Positions 165-7,014 of a stretch of DNA of 64,000 nt are shown here, in pieces. The stretch lies in the NCBI GenBank assembly GCA_018668595.1, contig JABJCP010000033.1, forward strand, positions 1 to 64,000, in the 5' to 3' direction. The notes beneath the pieces are model-generated. The model worked only from the letters and a program-made list of their open reading frames with translations. It made no database searches and was not told the origin of the DNA. Both the position numbers and the translations under genes were made by a program. This DNA comes from Candidatus Woesearchaeota archaeon (GTDB taxonomy: Archaea; Nanobdellota; Nanobdellia; Woesearchaeales; UBA11576). Within the stretch, counting starts at the first letter, position 1. Each line of letters starts with the position of its first letter.

Positions 165-2846
165 ATGAATGAAACTCTAAAAGAAAAAAAAACAGGAGAA
201 CCAGAGCAAAAACCTGATTGGTATTTATTATCTCCTAAAGATATTTTTTCTAAATTGACTAGTTCTCCTAAAGGATTAAGCAGTGCAGATGCAACAAAAC
301 GTCTTGAAGAATTTGGACATAACGAACTTGCACAAGGAAAACAGGAAACTTGGTTTGACCTTATTTTAGCTCAATTCAAATCACCTATTGTTTGGATTCT
401 TATTGGTGCTATCATTATTTCATTAATTGTACGAGAGTATGTTGATGCAACAGTTATAATTATTATTTTAATTCTTAATGCAGTTTTGGGTTTTATTCAG
501 GAATTTAAGGCTGAAAAATCAATTCAAGCTCTAAAAAAGATGACAAGTCTTAAGGCAACGGTTCTTAGAGATGGTAGACATATAAAAATCGATGCCAAAG
601 ATTTGGTTCCTGGAGATATTTTAATTCTTGAAACTGGTGAAAAAGTTCCTGCAGATTGTCGTTTGATAGAAGTTGTTGGTCTTCAAATTCAAGAATCTGC
701 TTTGACTGGAGAATCTGTTCCTGTAAATAAACGTCTTGATGAACTTACAAAAAAAGTTACTATTGGCGATCGTAAAAATATGATTTATTCGGGAACAATT
801 ATTACAGGCGGAAGAGGTATAGCAATTGTTTGTGAAACCGCAATGAATACTGAAATTGGAAAAATTGCTCATATGATTCAAACTGCTGAAAAAAAATTAA
901 CTCCTCTTCAAAAAAAGCTTGAAAAATTAGGTAGGTTTTTAGGAATTTTAGTTGTTATAATCGCAATCATTACATTTATTGCGGGTATGATGAAAGGCGG
1001 TAGTACTATTGAAATGCTATTGGCAGCAATTTCTTTAGCAGTTGCTGCAATTCCTGAAGGGTTACCTGCAGTTGTTACTATTTCTTTAGCATTAGGTGTT
1101 CAAAGAATGATTAAACGTAATGCTCTAATGCGTCATCTCCCTAGCGTCGAGACTCTTGGTGCAACTACTGTTATTTGTAGTGATAAAACAGGAACCTTAA
1201 CTCATAATCAAATGACTGTAAAAAGAATTTTTTATGAAAACAAAGATATTTCTGTTTCTGGAGAGGGTTACAAATCAGATGGTGAATTTTCTGTTAAAAA
1301 AGAAAATCTTAAACTAATTCTTACTATTGGCGCACTTACTAATGATGCTAAACTTGATCGTCAAAAGTGGGAAGTAATGGGTGATCCAACAGAAGGTTGT
1401 TTGCTAACAAGTGCACTTAAAGGTAATCTTGATTATGAAGAACTTAATAAAAAATATCCTCGTGTTGATGAAATTCAATTTACTAGTGAAAGAAAGTGCA
1501 TGACTACTGTTCACAAAACAGACAAAGCAAACAAAAGAGTTGTGTATACTAAAGGTGCTGTTGATGTTATTCTTAACAAATGTGAATTTGTTTGGTTAAA
1601 TGGTCAACGCCAAAGAATGAATAGAGATATGAAAAAAATGCTTTTAGAAAAAAATGATGAATACTCTTCTCAAGCATTAAGAGTTCTTGGTTTTGCATTT
1701 AAAGAAATATCAAATAAAACTAAAAAAGAAGATTATGAAAAACAATTAATTTTTGTTGGAATGCAGTGTATGATTGATCCTCCAAGAAGAGAAGTTAAGG
1801 ATGCTATTGTAAAATGTAAAACTGCAGGTATTAAAGTTGTTATGATTACAGGAGATTACCTTAAGACTGCTGTAGCTATTGGCCGTGACCTGGGTATTGA
1901 AGGCAGGGCGATGATGGGCTCTGAATTAGATGATATGAGTGATAAAGAAATTGAAGCAATAGTAAGAGACATTGGAATTTATGCACGAGTAAATCCTGAA
2001 CATAAATTAAAAATTGTTACTGCATTAAAAAACAATGGTCATGTTGTTGCTATGACTGGTGATGGAGTTAATGATGCACCTGCTCTAAAAAAAGCAGATA
2101 TTGGTATTGCCATGGGTATTGCAGGAACTGATGTTGCAAAAGAAGCTAGTGAAATGATCCTTACTGACGACAATTTCGCATCTATTGTTAGTGCTATTGA
2201 AGAAGGAAGAAATATTTTTGATAATATAAGAAAATTTGTTGAATATCTTCTTTCATGTAATCTTGGAGAAGTTCTTACTATTTTTGTAGCAATTATTCTG
2301 GGATTTCCACTCCCATTAATTGCTCTTCAAATTTTATGGGTTAATCTCACAACAGATGGACTTCCCGCTCTCGCATTAGGAGTCGATCCACCAAGTCCTA
2401 ATATCATGAAGAGAAAACCTAAAAAAGTTGAGTCTGGTATTCTTGATCGCCACAGAATTGTGTTTATGTTTTTTGTAGGAATTATTATGATGCTTGGAAC
2501 ACTTGCACTGTTTTACAAATATGATCCTATCAATAATCTTATGTATGCTCAGACTGTTGCATTTTGTACGCTTATGATGTTTCAAATGTTCAATGTATTT
2601 AATGCAAAAGCAGAGTCTAATTCACTTTTCAAAGAAGGAATATTTTCAAATCCAAAACTATGGTATGCAGTAGGATCATCAATCATATTTCAACTCATTG
2701 TAATTTATACTCCCCTCAGCGTGTTCTTTAAAACAGTTCCACTAACATTAATTGATTGGGGCTGGATAATAGCAGTTAGCTCATCAGTATTAATTCTTGG
2801 AGAACTAGTTAAGTTCATGTGGAAAGTCACAGGACATGATGATTAA
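165..2846 (+). CDS. Cation-transporting P-type ATPase (SERCA/Ca2+-type)
   Basis: 893-aa ORF with CSDKTGTLT phosphorylation motif, TGES, MTGDGVNDAPALKKADIGIAMG and PEGLPAVVTISLALG in TM4. Confidence 0.95.
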   Translation: MNETLKEKKTGEPEQKPDWYLLSPKDIFSKLTSSPKGLSSADATKRLEEFGHNELAQGKQETWFDLILAQFKSPIVWILIGAIIISLIVREYVDATVIIIILILNAVLGFIQEFKAEKSIQALKKMTSLKATVLRDGRHIKIDAKDLVPGDILILETGEKVPADCRLIEVVGLQIQESALTGESVPVNKRLDELTKKVTIGDRKNMIYSGTIITGGRGIAIVCETAMNTEIGKIAHMIQTAEKKLTPLQKKLEKLGRFLGILVVIIAIITFIAGMMKGGSTIEMLLAAISLAVAAIPEGLPAVVTISLALGVQRMIKRNALMRHLPSVETLGATTVICSDKTGTLTHNQMTVKRIFYENKDISVSGEGYKSDGEFSVKKENLKLILTIGALTNDAKLDRQKWEVMGDPTEGCLLTSALKGNLDYEELNKKYPRVDEIQFTSERKCMTTVHKTDKANKRVVYTKGAVDVILNKCEFVWLNGQRQRMNRDMKKMLLEKNDEYSSQALRVLGFAFKEISNKTKKEDYEKQLIFVGMQCMIDPPRREVKDAIVKCKTAGIKVVMITGDYLKTAVAIGRDLGIEGRAMMGSELDDMSDKEIEAIVRDIGIYARVNPEHKLKIVTALKNNGHVVAMTGDGVNDAPALKKADIGIAMGIAGTDVAKEASEMILTDDNFASIVSAIEEGRNIFDNIRKFVEYLLSCNLGEVLTIFVAIILGFPLPLIALQILWVNLTTDGLPALALGVDPPSPNIMKRKPKKVESGILDRHRIVFMFFVGIIMMLGTLALFYKYDPINNLMYAQTVAFCTLMMFQMFNVFNAKAESNSLFKEGIFSNPKLWYAVGSSIIFQLIVIYTPLSVFFKTVPLTLIDWGWIIAVSSSVLILGELVKFMWKVTGHDD

Positions 2847-2940: not shown

Positions 2941-4779
2941 ATGTCGCTAGGTACACAAGATAAAATAAATAAAGAAGATCACTTAAAACCTTTTTTCCAA
3001 GAGTTAGTAGATATAATCAAGTTAGAAAAACCTTCAAAAGAAAAACTTGCAAATCTAAAAATCAAACTTTGCGCAAAACACAAAGTAAAAAAAATTCCTA
3101 CAGATATTGAAATTCTTCTCAATGCTCCTAATTCTGATTTTTCAAAAATAAAAAAATTAATTCAAACAAAACCGACTAGAACAATTAGTGGTGTTGCAAT
3201 TGTTGCAGTTATGACAAAACCTCATAAGTGTCCTCATGGTAAGTGTACAATTTGCCCAGGAGGAATTAAATCTACATTCGGAACTGTTCCTCAAAGCTAT
3301 ACAGGACACGAACCTGCAACAATGAGAGGTATTAGAAACAAATTTGAACCATACACTCAAGTGTTTAATCGTCTTGAACAATATATTGTATTAGGTCATG
3401 TCCCTGATAAAGTTGAATTAATTATAATGGGCGGAACTTTTATTTCAACAAATCAAAACTACAAATTAAACTACGTTACTGGTTGTTTTCAGGCAATGAA
3501 TGATTTCTCAAAATTATTTTTTTCTAAAGGAAAACTTAATATTAAAAAGTTCAAAGAATTTTTTGAATTACCTGGGCGAGTAGGTGATGAGAAAAGAACT
3601 AAATTAATTCATGCTAAAATTAACAAATTAATTGAAAAAACAAAACAAAAAAAGACAAAAAACAAAAAACAATTAAACAAAACAGAATTAAAAAAAGAAC
3701 TCATTCATGCTCAGAAAAATAATGAAAAAACAAAAATTCGTTGTGTAGGATTAACTATTGAAACTCGTCCAGATCAAGGTCGCGCTTCACACGGAAATGA
3801 AATGTTAGACCTTGGAACCACACGTGTTGAATTAGGCATCCAATCAGTATTTGATCATGTTCTTCAAAAAATTAATAGAGGTCATGATGTTAATGAGTCA
3901 ATAAAATCTATCCAAGAACTAAAGGATCTTGGTTTTAAACTTAACTTTCATTACATGCTTGGACTTCCAGGATCTAATCCAAAAAAAGATTTAGAGGGGT
4001 TAAATGAACTCTTCAAAAATCAAAACTTTCGTCCAGACATGCTTAAAATTTATCCTTGCATGGTAATGCCTGGAACAAAACTTGAAAAAGAATTGGAAAA
4101 TAATGAATACAAACCAATCTCTACAAAAACAGCTGCAGAAATTATTGCTAAATTTAAAAAATTTATTCCAACTTATTGCAGAATTATGCGTGTTCAAAGA
4201 GATATTCCTCCTCAGCTTGCAGTTGCAGGAGTTGATAGATCAAACTTACGTCAAATTGTAGATCAAGTTTGCAAAAAACAAAATATACGCTGTAGATGCA
4301 TTCGTTGCAGAGAGATTGGAAGAGCAAAAAAAGTAGAAAAAATAGAACTAATTGATCAAAAGTATAAAGCAAGCAATGGAACTGAATTTTTCATTTCTGC
4401 AGAAGATAAAAAAAATGATGTTATTGCAGGTTTTTGTCGTCTAAGATTTCCTTCAAAACAAGCATTTCACCCAAAACAAATTAGATCTGAAATTACAAAA
4501 GATTCTGCATTAATCAGAGAGCTTCATGTTTATGGAGAAGCAGAATCAATAAAACAAAACAAAGAAAAAAACAAAAAAATAAATAAATCAACACAAATAA
4601 ACGCAAAAACAGCAACACAACATAAAGGTCTTGGTAAAAAACTTTTAAATCACGCAGAGCAAATTGCAAAACAAAACAAAAAAAACAAAATAATAGTAAT
4701 TTCAGGCATTGGTGCACGAGAGTACTACAGAAAACTAGGATACAAAAAACAAGGACCTTACATGGTTAAAAATATATAA
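2941..4779 (+). CDS. elp3: Elp3-type tRNA U34 carboxymethyltransferase (radical SAM + GNAT)
   Basis: KPHKCPHGKCTICPGG cysteine cluster, MGGTF, TIETRPD, GLPG; C-terminal GNAT HKGLGKKLL and GAREYYRKLGY. Confidence 0.95.
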   Translation: MSLGTQDKINKEDHLKPFFQELVDIIKLEKPSKEKLANLKIKLCAKHKVKKIPTDIEILLNAPNSDFSKIKKLIQTKPTRTISGVAIVAVMTKPHKCPHGKCTICPGGIKSTFGTVPQSYTGHEPATMRGIRNKFEPYTQVFNRLEQYIVLGHVPDKVELIIMGGTFISTNQNYKLNYVTGCFQAMNDFSKLFFSKGKLNIKKFKEFFELPGRVGDEKRTKLIHAKINKLIEKTKQKKTKNKKQLNKTELKKELIHAQKNNEKTKIRCVGLTIETRPDQGRASHGNEMLDLGTTRVELGIQSVFDHVLQKINRGHDVNESIKSIQELKDLGFKLNFHYMLGLPGSNPKKDLEGLNELFKNQNFRPDMLKIYPCMVMPGTKLEKELENNEYKPISTKTAAEIIAKFKKFIPTYCRIMRVQRDIPPQLAVAGVDRSNLRQIVDQVCKKQNIRCRCIRCREIGRAKKVEKIELIDQKYKASNGTEFFISAEDKKNDVIAGFCRLRFPSKQAFHPKQIRSEITKDSALIRELHVYGEAESIKQNKEKNKKINKSTQINAKTATQHKGLGKKLLNHAEQIAKQNKKNKIIVISGIGAREYYRKLGYKKQGPYMVKNI

Positions 4780-4830
4780 ACAAAACAATTAAAAGAAAAA
4801 TAGTTGCCATAACTGTAAATTACTAAATCA

Positions 4831-5065
4831 GCACTACCTTGGCACAATAGTTAAAATGAGCTTGCGAATTTTAATGTTGTCAAAGTTTACTTTGATTAAA
4901 TCAACGACGAGTAAAACGAGGAGTTAATGTAAATCAGAAAACAAGCTGATCCATGCAAGCTTATTTTCGATATGTGAAATTCATACTTCAGCTTTGCAAA
5001 GCAAAGATGAAGGCTTGCGAATCTCGAAGAGATTTGAAAGAGAATTTCATAAATTGCCGTAGTGC
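4831..5065 (+). ncRNA. Structured intergenic element A (GATYYATGCA-loop family)
   Basis: Closing stem GCACTAC(ctt)GGCA 4831-4844 / TGCC-GTAGTGC 5055-5065; internal hairpins TTAAAAT/ATTTTAA, TCAAAG-TTTA-CTTTGA, AAGCT-GATCCATGCA-AGCTT (4943-4962), AATCTC-GAA-GAGATT. Confidence 0.6.
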
Positions 5066-5096
5066 TACAAAAAAAATAAAACAAACCAACAAAAAA

Positions 5097-6017
5097 ATGC
5101 AATCAATAATCCAAACCCTAATCCAAGAAATTAAAAAAAAGAAAACTCTATCCAAACTAGATGACAAAATAGTAGAAACTAAATTAAATACATTACTAAA
5201 TCAAAATCCTAAAACAAAAAAACTAATATCATCTGAAGAAAATTATGAAAAAATTAAAAAATCTAAACTCGTCAAAGAAATTATAAAACAAACAAGAAAT
5301 GATTTTAATATTATTTATGGTCAATTTCAATCAAAAGAACCAAAACATACAAATAAACTACTAGAACAATTAAAAAAAGAATTAAACTCTACAAATTTAA
5401 CTGAACAAAATATTTTAGAGCTTCACAATAATCTTTTAAAAACTCATCTCTCGACGAAAGAAAGAATTAAAGATCAAGAAAAAATCATTAAAGAAATTAT
5501 AGTTGAACTAAACAAAAATAAAACTCGTGAAACAGATTCTTTAAACATTCTTGATCTTGCTTGCGGGTTTAATCCTTTTTCAATTCCCTTCTGGTTAAAT
5601 ATTACAAAAATAAAAAAGATTTCCTACACTTGCAGTGATTTTACTAAACAAGATCAAGAAATAATAGAAAATTACTTTAAAATATTATCAAACAAATATA
5701 ATGAGTTAAAAGGTGAATCGATTCAATTGGATATTTCTAAACCAGACTCAGAAAATCATAAAATATTTTCCAAAAAATATGATTTTGCATTAATTTGGAA
5801 AACATTAGACCTCATCGACCACAAACAAGCGGAAAATTTTATAAACAAAATTGATTCTGACTTAATCATAATCAGTTTTTCGACAGTTACTGTCAAAAAC
5901 AGACGTATGAATGTTAAAAAACGTAGTTGGCTACATAAATTACTAAGAAGATTAAATTTAAAATATGAAATAAAAGAATACAGTAATGAATTATTTTATT
6001 TTATTGAAAAAAAATAA
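5097..6017 (+). CDS. 16S rRNA methyltransferase of the FmrO/Rmt/ArmA (m7G1405) family, putative
   Basis: HLSTKERI, ILDLACGFNPFSIPFWL, IWKTLDLIDHKQ, IISFSTVTVKNRRMN match the conserved blocks of the family. The track ORF starts at 4953 inside element A; ATG 5097 is the more likely start. Confidence 0.75.
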   Translation: MQSIIQTLIQEIKKKKTLSKLDDKIVETKLNTLLNQNPKTKKLISSEENYEKIKKSKLVKEIIKQTRNDFNIIYGQFQSKEPKHTNKLLEQLKKELNSTNLTEQNILELHNNLLKTHLSTKERIKDQEKIIKEIIVELNKNKTRETDSLNILDLACGFNPFSIPFWLNITKIKKISYTCSDFTKQDQEIIENYFKILSNKYNELKGESIQLDISKPDSENHKIFSKKYDFALIWKTLDLIDHKQAENFINKIDSDLIIISFSTVTVKNRRMNVKKRSWLHKLLRRLNLKYEIKEYSNELFYFIEKK

Positions 6018-6069: not shown

Positions 6070-7014
6070 ATGACAAATCTAACCAAAAATCCAAATATAG
6101 AAAAACTCGAGTGGAAGCCAAAAATGGTAGAACGCTACTCTAAACTAACAGATTTTGATAAGTTCAAAGAATACAGCGAATATTATCTTACCAAATCTAT
6201 CAGAATTAATACTTTAAAAAAATCTATTGAAGAAGTAAAAAAAAGAATTGAAAAACAAGGTTTCAAACTTACTCAAGTTCCTTGGTGCAAAGAAGGTTTT
6301 TGGATTCAAGGTGAACGAACAGATATTGGCAATCTTTTAGAACATACTTTAGGTTATATTTATGTGCAAGAAGCAGCTTCAATGATTCCACCAGTAGTAC
6401 TAGATCCACAACCAGGAGATATTGTTCTTGATATGTGCGCGGCACCCGGTTCTAAAACAACCCAAATCGCAGCAATGATACAAAACAAAGGTTTTATTAT
6501 TGCAAATGAGATTGAATGGAAAAGAGGGATTTCTCTAGGTATTAATGTTCAGCGTTGTGGAATCCAAAATTATGTATTAACAAACATGAGAGGTCAAGAC
6601 ATCAAAGGGAGTTTTGATAAAATACTTATTGATGCTCCTTGTACAGCCACAGGAACTATACGAAAAAGTGCAACTTCTCTTCTTGAATGGAATCCTACCC
6701 GAGTAAAAAGGGTTGCAAAAATCCAAAGAGAATTACTAGAACATGGATTTAACCTACTAAAACCAGGAGGGATTTTGGTATATAGTACATGCACATTAGA
6801 ACCTGAAGAAAATGAAGGAGTAGTAGATTTCTTAATAAATAAATTCGAAAATGCAAAAGTAGAACCTATAGATCTAACAATAAACAGAACACCCGCAGTA
6901 ACTGAATTTGAAGGAGCAACTTACAGCGACGAGGTAAAAAAAACTTTAAGAATCTGGCCGCAAGATAATGATAGTGAAGGTTTTTTTGTTGCAAGAATAA
7001 AGAAAGAAGAATAA
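6070..7014 (+). CDS. NSUN/RsmB-type RNA cytosine-C5 methyltransferase
   Basis: DMCAAPGSKTTQIA, DAPCTATGT, YSTCTLEPEENE. Confidence 0.93.
   Translation: MTNLTKNPNIEKLEWKPKMVERYSKLTDFDKFKEYSEYYLTKSIRINTLKKSIEEVKKRIEKQGFKLTQVPWCKEGFWIQGERTDIGNLLEHTLGYIYVQEAASMIPPVVLDPQPGDIVLDMCAAPGSKTTQIAAMIQNKGFIIANEIEWKRGISLGINVQRCGIQNYVLTNMRGQDIKGSFDKILIDAPCTATGTIRKSATSLLEWNPTRVKRVAKIQRELLEHGFNLLKPGGILVYSTCTLEPEENEGVVDFLINKFENAKVEPIDLTINRTPAVTEFEGATYSDEVKKTLRIWPQDNDSEGFFVARIKKEE

What the first reader, a model, noticed from the sequence alone, without database searches (positions are those of the whole stretch)
5097..6017. Archaeal homologue of aminoglycoside-resistance 16S rRNA methyltransferases (ArmA/Rmt/FmrO)
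HxSTxERI, ILDLACGFNPFSIPF and SFSTVTVKNRRM blocks match the m7G1405 methyltransferase family, known mainly from antibiotic producers and plasmids of bacteria. It sits with elp3, an NSUN methyltransferase and an MnmC-like enzyme, suggesting a native RNA-modification role and possibly an ancestral source for the family.
Basis: partly seen in the sequence, partly recalled or inferred. Interest (0 to 1): 0.72.

Follow-up and report, generated by a model that had tools for sequence, protein, structure and literature searches.

The report
Archaeal sister of aminoglycoside-resistance rRNA methylases
A gene in a Woesearchaeota-type archaeon belongs to a widespread, chromosomal archaeal branch of the enzyme family that bacteria use to block aminoglycoside antibiotics, and its gene neighbours suggest that in these archaea it is an ordinary ribosome-modifying enzyme rather than a resistance gene.

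Summary
The 306-aa ORF at 5097-6017(+) carries all three quoted motifs, passes the Pfam FmrO cut-off, and by sequence and predicted fold matches only the m7G1405 16S rRNA methyltransferases above background (Sgm, RmtB, RmtC, RmtF, ArmA), including their N-terminal 30S-recognition domain. Homologues of this archaeal type occur in about half of the sampled genomes of the window's phylum (Woesearchaeota, Pacearchaeota, Nanoarchaeota). In trees they form one side of a 100/99-supported branch; all clinical and producer genes, with chromosomal Chloroflexota genes, lie on the other side. They look like a sister lineage and are not shown to be the source of the resistance genes. In deep-branching relatives the gene overlaps pelota, or follows aIF1A and a Pno1-type KH gene; in the window it sits between elp3 and an NSUN m5C methyltransferase, a linkage conserved in relatives. 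No viral homologue was found. Best reading: a native small-subunit rRNA guanine-N7 methyltransferase, most likely acting on G1405, which is intact in this genome's 16S. Methylation itself is untested. A nanoarchaeal homologue was mentioned in one sentence in 2013; the breadth, the separation from the bacterial branch and the translation-gene context appear undescribed.

The parts
5097..6017 (+). FmrO-family (m7G1405-type) rRNA guanine-N7 methyltransferase, 306 aa: N-terminal recognition domain about residues 1-110, linker motif HxSTxER (117-123), SAM-binding motif DLACGFNP (153-160), conserved D229/K235, C-terminal SFSxxTxxxxxM (260-271) and E298
2941..4779 (+). elp3 (tRNA U34 modification radical SAM/GNAT), upstream neighbour; kept beside the fmrO-like gene in same-genus genome G001 and one other family, and two genes upstream in G004
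   Evidence: TIGR01211 631.8 bits; clusters 24/0
6070..7014 (+). NSUN/RsmF-type RNA m5C methyltransferase, 52 nt downstream; same order and strand in four related loci with gaps of 6-28 nt
   Evidence: TIGR00446 293.5 bits, PF01189 174.6 bits
7232..7918 (+). MnmC2-like methyltransferase (PF05430), part of the block conserved with G001
165..2846 (+). cation P-type ATPase, outer end of the five-gene block conserved with G001
4800..5090 (.). intergenic dispersed repeat upstream of the gene, with 27 further partial matches in the genome; not part of the coding sequence

Best explanation
The gene encodes a native, chromosomal, SAM-dependent small-subunit rRNA guanine-N7 methyltransferase of Woesearchaeota/Nanoarchaeota-type archaea. 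It most likely docks on assembled or nearly assembled 30S through its N-terminal helical domain and methylates N7 of G1405 in the decoding-site helix h44, as Sgm, RmtB, RmtC and ArmA do in bacteria. Its role is ribosome maturation or decoding fine-tuning, not drug resistance. Shown here: family membership, fold including the N-terminal domain, conservation of the residues shared by all family members, an intact G1405 in the host 16S, wide chromosomal distribution, and recurrent linkage to translation and ribosome-biogenesis genes. Inferred: the m7G product, the exact site, and the housekeeping role.
For: Pfam FmrO is above cut-off and no other family competes. NCBIfam and PDB sequence hits are the m7G1405 enzymes; the only other PDB hit is a lysozyme at E = 2. 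A close archaeal homologue searched against 72,556 plasmids finds RmtB (2e-16), RmtE (1e-15), RmtC, RmtF and ArmA as the top-scoring matches. The AlphaFold model (pLDDT 91.9, pTM 0.86) has only m7G1405 enzymes in the first ten VIA-align places: Z 18.3-26.6, aligned over model residues 1-306 except for the ArmA fragment; the best unrelated methyltransferase is at Z 16.4 and covers the catalytic part only. Ten residues are invariant across six archaeal, five plasmid and three Chloroflexota sequences: H117, S119, E122, R123, D153, N159, P160, D229, K235, E298. 16S of G000 and 13 other genomes of the order keeps GCCCGUC around G1405. About 182 of 371 genomes of the phylum have a homologue with E below about 1e-15 (counted by eye). 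The preceding gene is pelota in 27 of 89 loci, mostly overlapping it by 7-25 nt, and an arCOG04150/Pno1-type KH gene in about 10, several of them behind aIF1A. In the window's close relatives the NSUN gene follows by 6-52 nt. No viral-contig homologue was found.
Against: No modification data exist for this organism. The mapped 16S of the archaeon Haloferax volcanii has a modified C at 1404 and m6A at 1500 but no m7G at 1405 (PMC2584109), and three non-DPANN control archaea lack FmrO, so the activity has no archaeal precedent that I found. The bacterial C-terminal motif SLGGRxKGM is altered in archaea. The window's own protein has V264 where nearly all relatives have K, R or H, and N71 where bacteria have H and most archaea R or H. 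The score lies far below the NCBIfam Rmt equivalog cut-off. Distribution is patchy: for example G002 and G006 of the same family lack the gene.
Confidence: 0.7

Rival explanations
1. Same fold and SAM chemistry but a different target: another guanine of 16S rRNA, 23S rRNA or a tRNA, with the archaeal enzymes having changed specificity since the split from the bacterial branch.
For: Archaeal and bacterial sequences are separated by a long branch. The C-terminal loop motif differs systematically (bacterial GxxKGMxxxY against archaeal MxxxxRxWF), and archaeal lineages share an R276-W278 pair not seen as such in bacteria. Neighbours in the window (Elp3, MnmC2-like, NSUN) act on tRNA at least in part.
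Against: The N-terminal 30S-recognition domain aligns along its length, the linker motif HxSTxER is retained, and the commonest neighbours elsewhere are ribosome-centred (pelota, Pno1-type KH, aIF1A).
Confidence: 0.2
2. An aminoglycoside self-protection or resistance gene acquired from bacteria, as in actinomycetes and clinical plasmids.
For: The family is best known for this, and the homologues are patchily distributed among relatives.
Against: Archaeal sequences form one side of a 100/99 branch, without mixing with bacterial ones. The gene was found here only in chromosomal contigs, next to translation genes, in about half of a whole phylum. None was found in viral contigs or, outside the known resistance genes, in plasmids or phage records.
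Confidence: 0.05
3. A degenerate, catalytically inactive family member in this particular genus.
For: Window-specific substitutions V264 and N71 at positions otherwise basic.
Against: The ORF is intact, every family-invariant residue is retained, the same-genus homologue has K at the position of V264, and synteny is conserved between the two species.
Confidence: 0.05

Closest known systems
Sgm of Micromonospora zionensis (16S rRNA m7G1405 methyltransferase; PDB 3lcu/3lcv)
   Same: Best PDB match by sequence (E 2.1e-6) and by structure (Z 26.6, 256 aligned residues, 22% identity); same two-domain layout and motifs
   Different: Producer self-resistance gene; lies with bacterial sequences in the tree
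Acquired resistance methyltransferases RmtB, RmtC, RmtE, RmtF, ArmA
   Same: About 20-27% identity to the window protein, all ten invariant residues shared; RmtB, RmtC, RmtF and ArmA structures share the fold
   Different: Plasmid or transposon-borne; separated from the archaeal clade by a 100/99 branch; full SLGGRxKGM-type C-terminal motif
Chromosomal FmrO genes of Chloroflexota
   Same: Members of the same Pfam family in 58 of 301 sampled genomes
   Different: Closer to Sgm/Rmt than to archaea; sometimes in tandem pairs (L166)
Homologue of bacterial 16S rRNA methyltransferase in Nanoarchaeum equitans and Nst1 (Podar et al. 2013, PMC3655853)
   Same: One sentence reports a homologue, citing the Sgm structure paper, shared by the two nanoarchaea and not found in other archaea then sequenced
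   Different: No context, tree or distribution was given in the passage read; the present data extend it to Woesearchaeota and Pacearchaeota and place it apart from the resistance genes. That it is the same gene is inferred from the citation, not tested

Membership tests
Pfam FmrO (PF07091) / Arm-Rmt-Sgm fold family | Score above the curated family cut-off | tested here: met
   34.9 bits against 27
Pfam FmrO (PF07091) / Arm-Rmt-Sgm fold family | N-terminal helical 30S-recognition domain plus C-terminal Rossmann methyltransferase domain | tested here: met
   AlphaFold model aligned over 1-306 to Sgm, RmtB, RmtC and RmtF, Z 18-27
Pfam FmrO (PF07091) / Arm-Rmt-Sgm fold family | Residues invariant among known m7G1405 enzymes (HxSxxER, D..CG.NP, D/K of the later motifs, C-terminal E) | tested here: met
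Pfam FmrO (PF07091) / Arm-Rmt-Sgm fold family | C-terminal loop S[LI]xGRxxGM of bacterial members | tested here: inconclusive
   S260 and M271 kept; GR/KG positions changed, K to V at 264 in the window; most archaeal relatives keep K
NCBIfam Rmt equivalog NF000466 (resistance Rmt family) | Score above the equivalog cut-off of 250 bits | tested here: not met
   89.5 bits; best archaeal relative 158 bits. It is therefore not filed as an Rmt resistance equivalog
m7G1405 16S rRNA methyltransferase (function) | Target G1405 present in the host 16S rRNA | tested here: met
   GCCCGUC intact in G000 and relatives
m7G1405 16S rRNA methyltransferase (function) | Transfers methyl to N7 of G1405 in 30S | not testable with these tools
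   needs biochemistry or RNA mapping
Aminoglycoside resistance determinant | Mobile-element or producer-cluster gene context | tested here: not met
   chromosomal contigs, beside translation genes; no viral relatives
Aminoglycoside resistance determinant | Resistance phenotype | not testable with these tools
   needs an expression and susceptibility test

The most novel reading that the evidence does not exclude
A large part of the Nanoarchaeota/Woesearchaeota radiation constitutively methylates 16S rRNA at N7 of G1405, a decoding-site mark so far known only as an antibiotic-resistance modification. In these archaea it would be laid down by a housekeeping enzyme encoded with pelota, aIF1A and Pno1-type genes. 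The resistance function in bacteria would then be one specialised use of an older or parallel ribosome-maturation activity.
Probability: 0.55. Interest if true: 0.7.

Novelty: new variant of a known kind. Interest (0 to 1): 0.5.

Why it matters
If confirmed, m7G1405, treated in the literature read here as a drug-resistance mark that often carries a fitness cost in E. coli, would be a normal rRNA modification in a major archaeal lineage. That would give a native context in which to learn what the mark does to decoding, and it would change how 16S-methyltransferase hits in environmental metagenomes are read: archaeal hits would be housekeeping genes, not resistome. The tree also argues against looking in archaea for the direct donor of the clinical genes.

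Tried and rejected
Archaea as source of the clinical genes: not supported, because archaeal and bacterial sequences separate at a 100/99 branch and the resistance genes fall with Chloroflexota; no outgroup was available, so direction remains open. A better match to another methyltransferase family: none found in Pfam, NCBIfam or PDB. A longer ORF from 4953: rejected, the extension is a dispersed repeat. Viral or mobile origin: no confirmed relative in viral contigs; the two phage-record hits, in contigs labelled Acinetobacter phage, match like ArmA. A link between carrying the gene and changes in 16S h44: none seen; A1499 to C is present in carriers and non-carriers alike, but only 14 genomes were usable. 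A genome-contig scan with the full alignment A1 failed for lack of a conserved stretch and was replaced by A2. The Sgm, RmtC-30S and RmtC-residue papers were not held, so mutational data on single residues could not be checked. Whether archaea outside this phylum carry the gene was tested only through three control genomes.

Full report
What is there. All three quoted motifs are present. Pfam assigns FmrO above its curated threshold with no competing family. The NCBIfam general Rmt model matches nearly the whole protein (51-304, E 2.2e-25), but at 89.5 bits against an equivalog cut-off of 250. It is therefore a family relative and not a resistance-class Rmt. PDB sequence hits are Sgm, RmtC, ArmA, RmtB and RmtF; the only other hit is a lysozyme at E = 2.

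Independent checks of the family call. A close archaeal homologue (L002) searched by tblastn against 72,556 plasmids returns RmtB (2e-16), RmtE (1e-15), RmtC, RmtF and ArmA as its top-scoring matches. A profile of 15 archaeal sequences, run over the ORFs of the loci then held, picked out only FmrO-type genes at E < 1e-8, including all five plasmid enzymes. An AlphaFold model from 38 homologues is confident (pLDDT 91.9, pTM 0.86). Foldseek ranks Sgm, RmtC and ArmA first. VIA-align 2 gives m7G1405 enzymes the first ten places, Z 18.3-26.6, aligned over both domains apart from the ArmA fragment; the first other methyltransferase has Z 16.4 and covers only the catalytic part. Ten residues are invariant across archaeal, plasmid and Chloroflexota sequences: H117, S119, E122, R123, D153, N159, P160, D229, K235, E298. 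The C-terminal loop differs: bacteria have S-L-G-G-R-x-K-G-M, archaea T-K-T-L-x-x-x-x-M followed by R-x-W. The window protein has V264 where nearly all others have K, R or H.

Distribution. In the window's phylum 228 of 371 sampled genomes match the archaeal profile, of which about 182 match at E below about 1e-15 (my count from the listing). Named relatives are Woesearchaeota, Nanoarchaeota and Pacearchaeota, with one Anaerolineaceae bacterium. Chloroflexota carry FmrO above cut-off in 58 of 301 genomes. Of 14 control genomes, which include three non-DPANN archaea, none has it. A viral-contig scan found no relative.

Phylogeny. In a 132-sequence tree the 94 archaeal sequences are one side of a branch with SH-aLRT 99. 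A careful 58-sequence tree gives 100/99 for the same split. Sgm, ArmA and RmtB, C, E and F fall with Chloroflexota on the other side. The archaeal genes are therefore a sister lineage; nothing here makes them the source of the resistance genes. There is no outgroup, so the root and the direction of any ancient transfer are open.

Gene context. In the window the order is P-type ATPase, elp3, fmrO-like, NSUN, MnmC2-like. The same five-gene block is present in the other species of the genus, and elp3 and NSUN also flank the gene, less tightly, in G004. The NSUN gene follows the fmrO-like gene by 6-52 nt in five loci, the window and its close relatives. Elsewhere the commonest arrangement, spread over several deep archaeal branches, is pelota immediately upstream, usually overlapping by 7-25 nt, then a TrmB-type regulator and often pheS-pheT. 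In another group the gene follows aIF1A and an arCOG04150 KH protein of the Pno1/Krr1 type. Pelota acts in ribosome rescue, aIF1A binds the A site, and Pno1/Dim2 acts in small-subunit maturation (own knowledge). This recurrent linkage is the main evidence for a housekeeping role.

Target. The 16S rRNA of this genome (L036; located) has the G1405 region intact, as do 13 other genomes of the order, carriers and non-carriers alike. Sgm and KgmB methylate bacterial 30S but not yeast 40S or naked 18S rRNA (PMC2791848), so recognition depends on subunit architecture and an archaeal enzyme may well need its own contacts. Haloferax 16S has a modified C1404 and m6A1500 but no m7G1405 (PMC2584109).

What was known. 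Podar et al. 2013 (PMC3655853) noted in one sentence that two nanoarchaea share a homologue of a bacterial 16S rRNA methyltransferase, citing the Sgm structure. Searches for FmrO with archaea, and for Woesearchaeota with aminoglycoside and rRNA methyltransferase, returned nothing in the held library; most subscription journals are not in it.

Judgement. Family membership is secure. A native rRNA-modifying role is likely. The site G1405 is the best guess but unproven, since the archaeal branch is long and its C-terminal loop has changed.

Noticed in passing
window 4800-5090: Intergenic DNA upstream of the gene is a dispersed repeat with 27 further partial matches elsewhere in the genome (68-96% identity); origin unknown.
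   Followed up: partly
L036 (own 16S rRNA, G000:C26) and L040 (G001): Both genomes of the window's genus have U at E. coli position 1400 of 16S rRNA, where the other 12 genomes compared have C.
   Followed up: partly
L036-L053 (16S loci of the order): Position 1499 of 16S rRNA reads C in all 14 genomes of the order examined, where E. coli has A (E. coli numbering from own knowledge).
   Followed up: no
L166; G391, G559, G591 and G681: Several Chloroflexota genomes carry two adjacent FmrO genes in tandem, the second one divergent.
   Followed up: no
L094, L105, L024 and relatives: A recurrent archaeal block pelota - fmrO-like - TrmB-type regulator - pheS - pheT - SLOG-family gene, with two large genes without a Pfam match (clusters 3 and 5) on the opposite strand upstream.
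   Followed up: partly
L108 2560-2877 and relatives: A 106-aa protein matching only the C-terminal part of NMD3 lies upstream of aIF1A in the Pno1-type arrangement.
   Followed up: no
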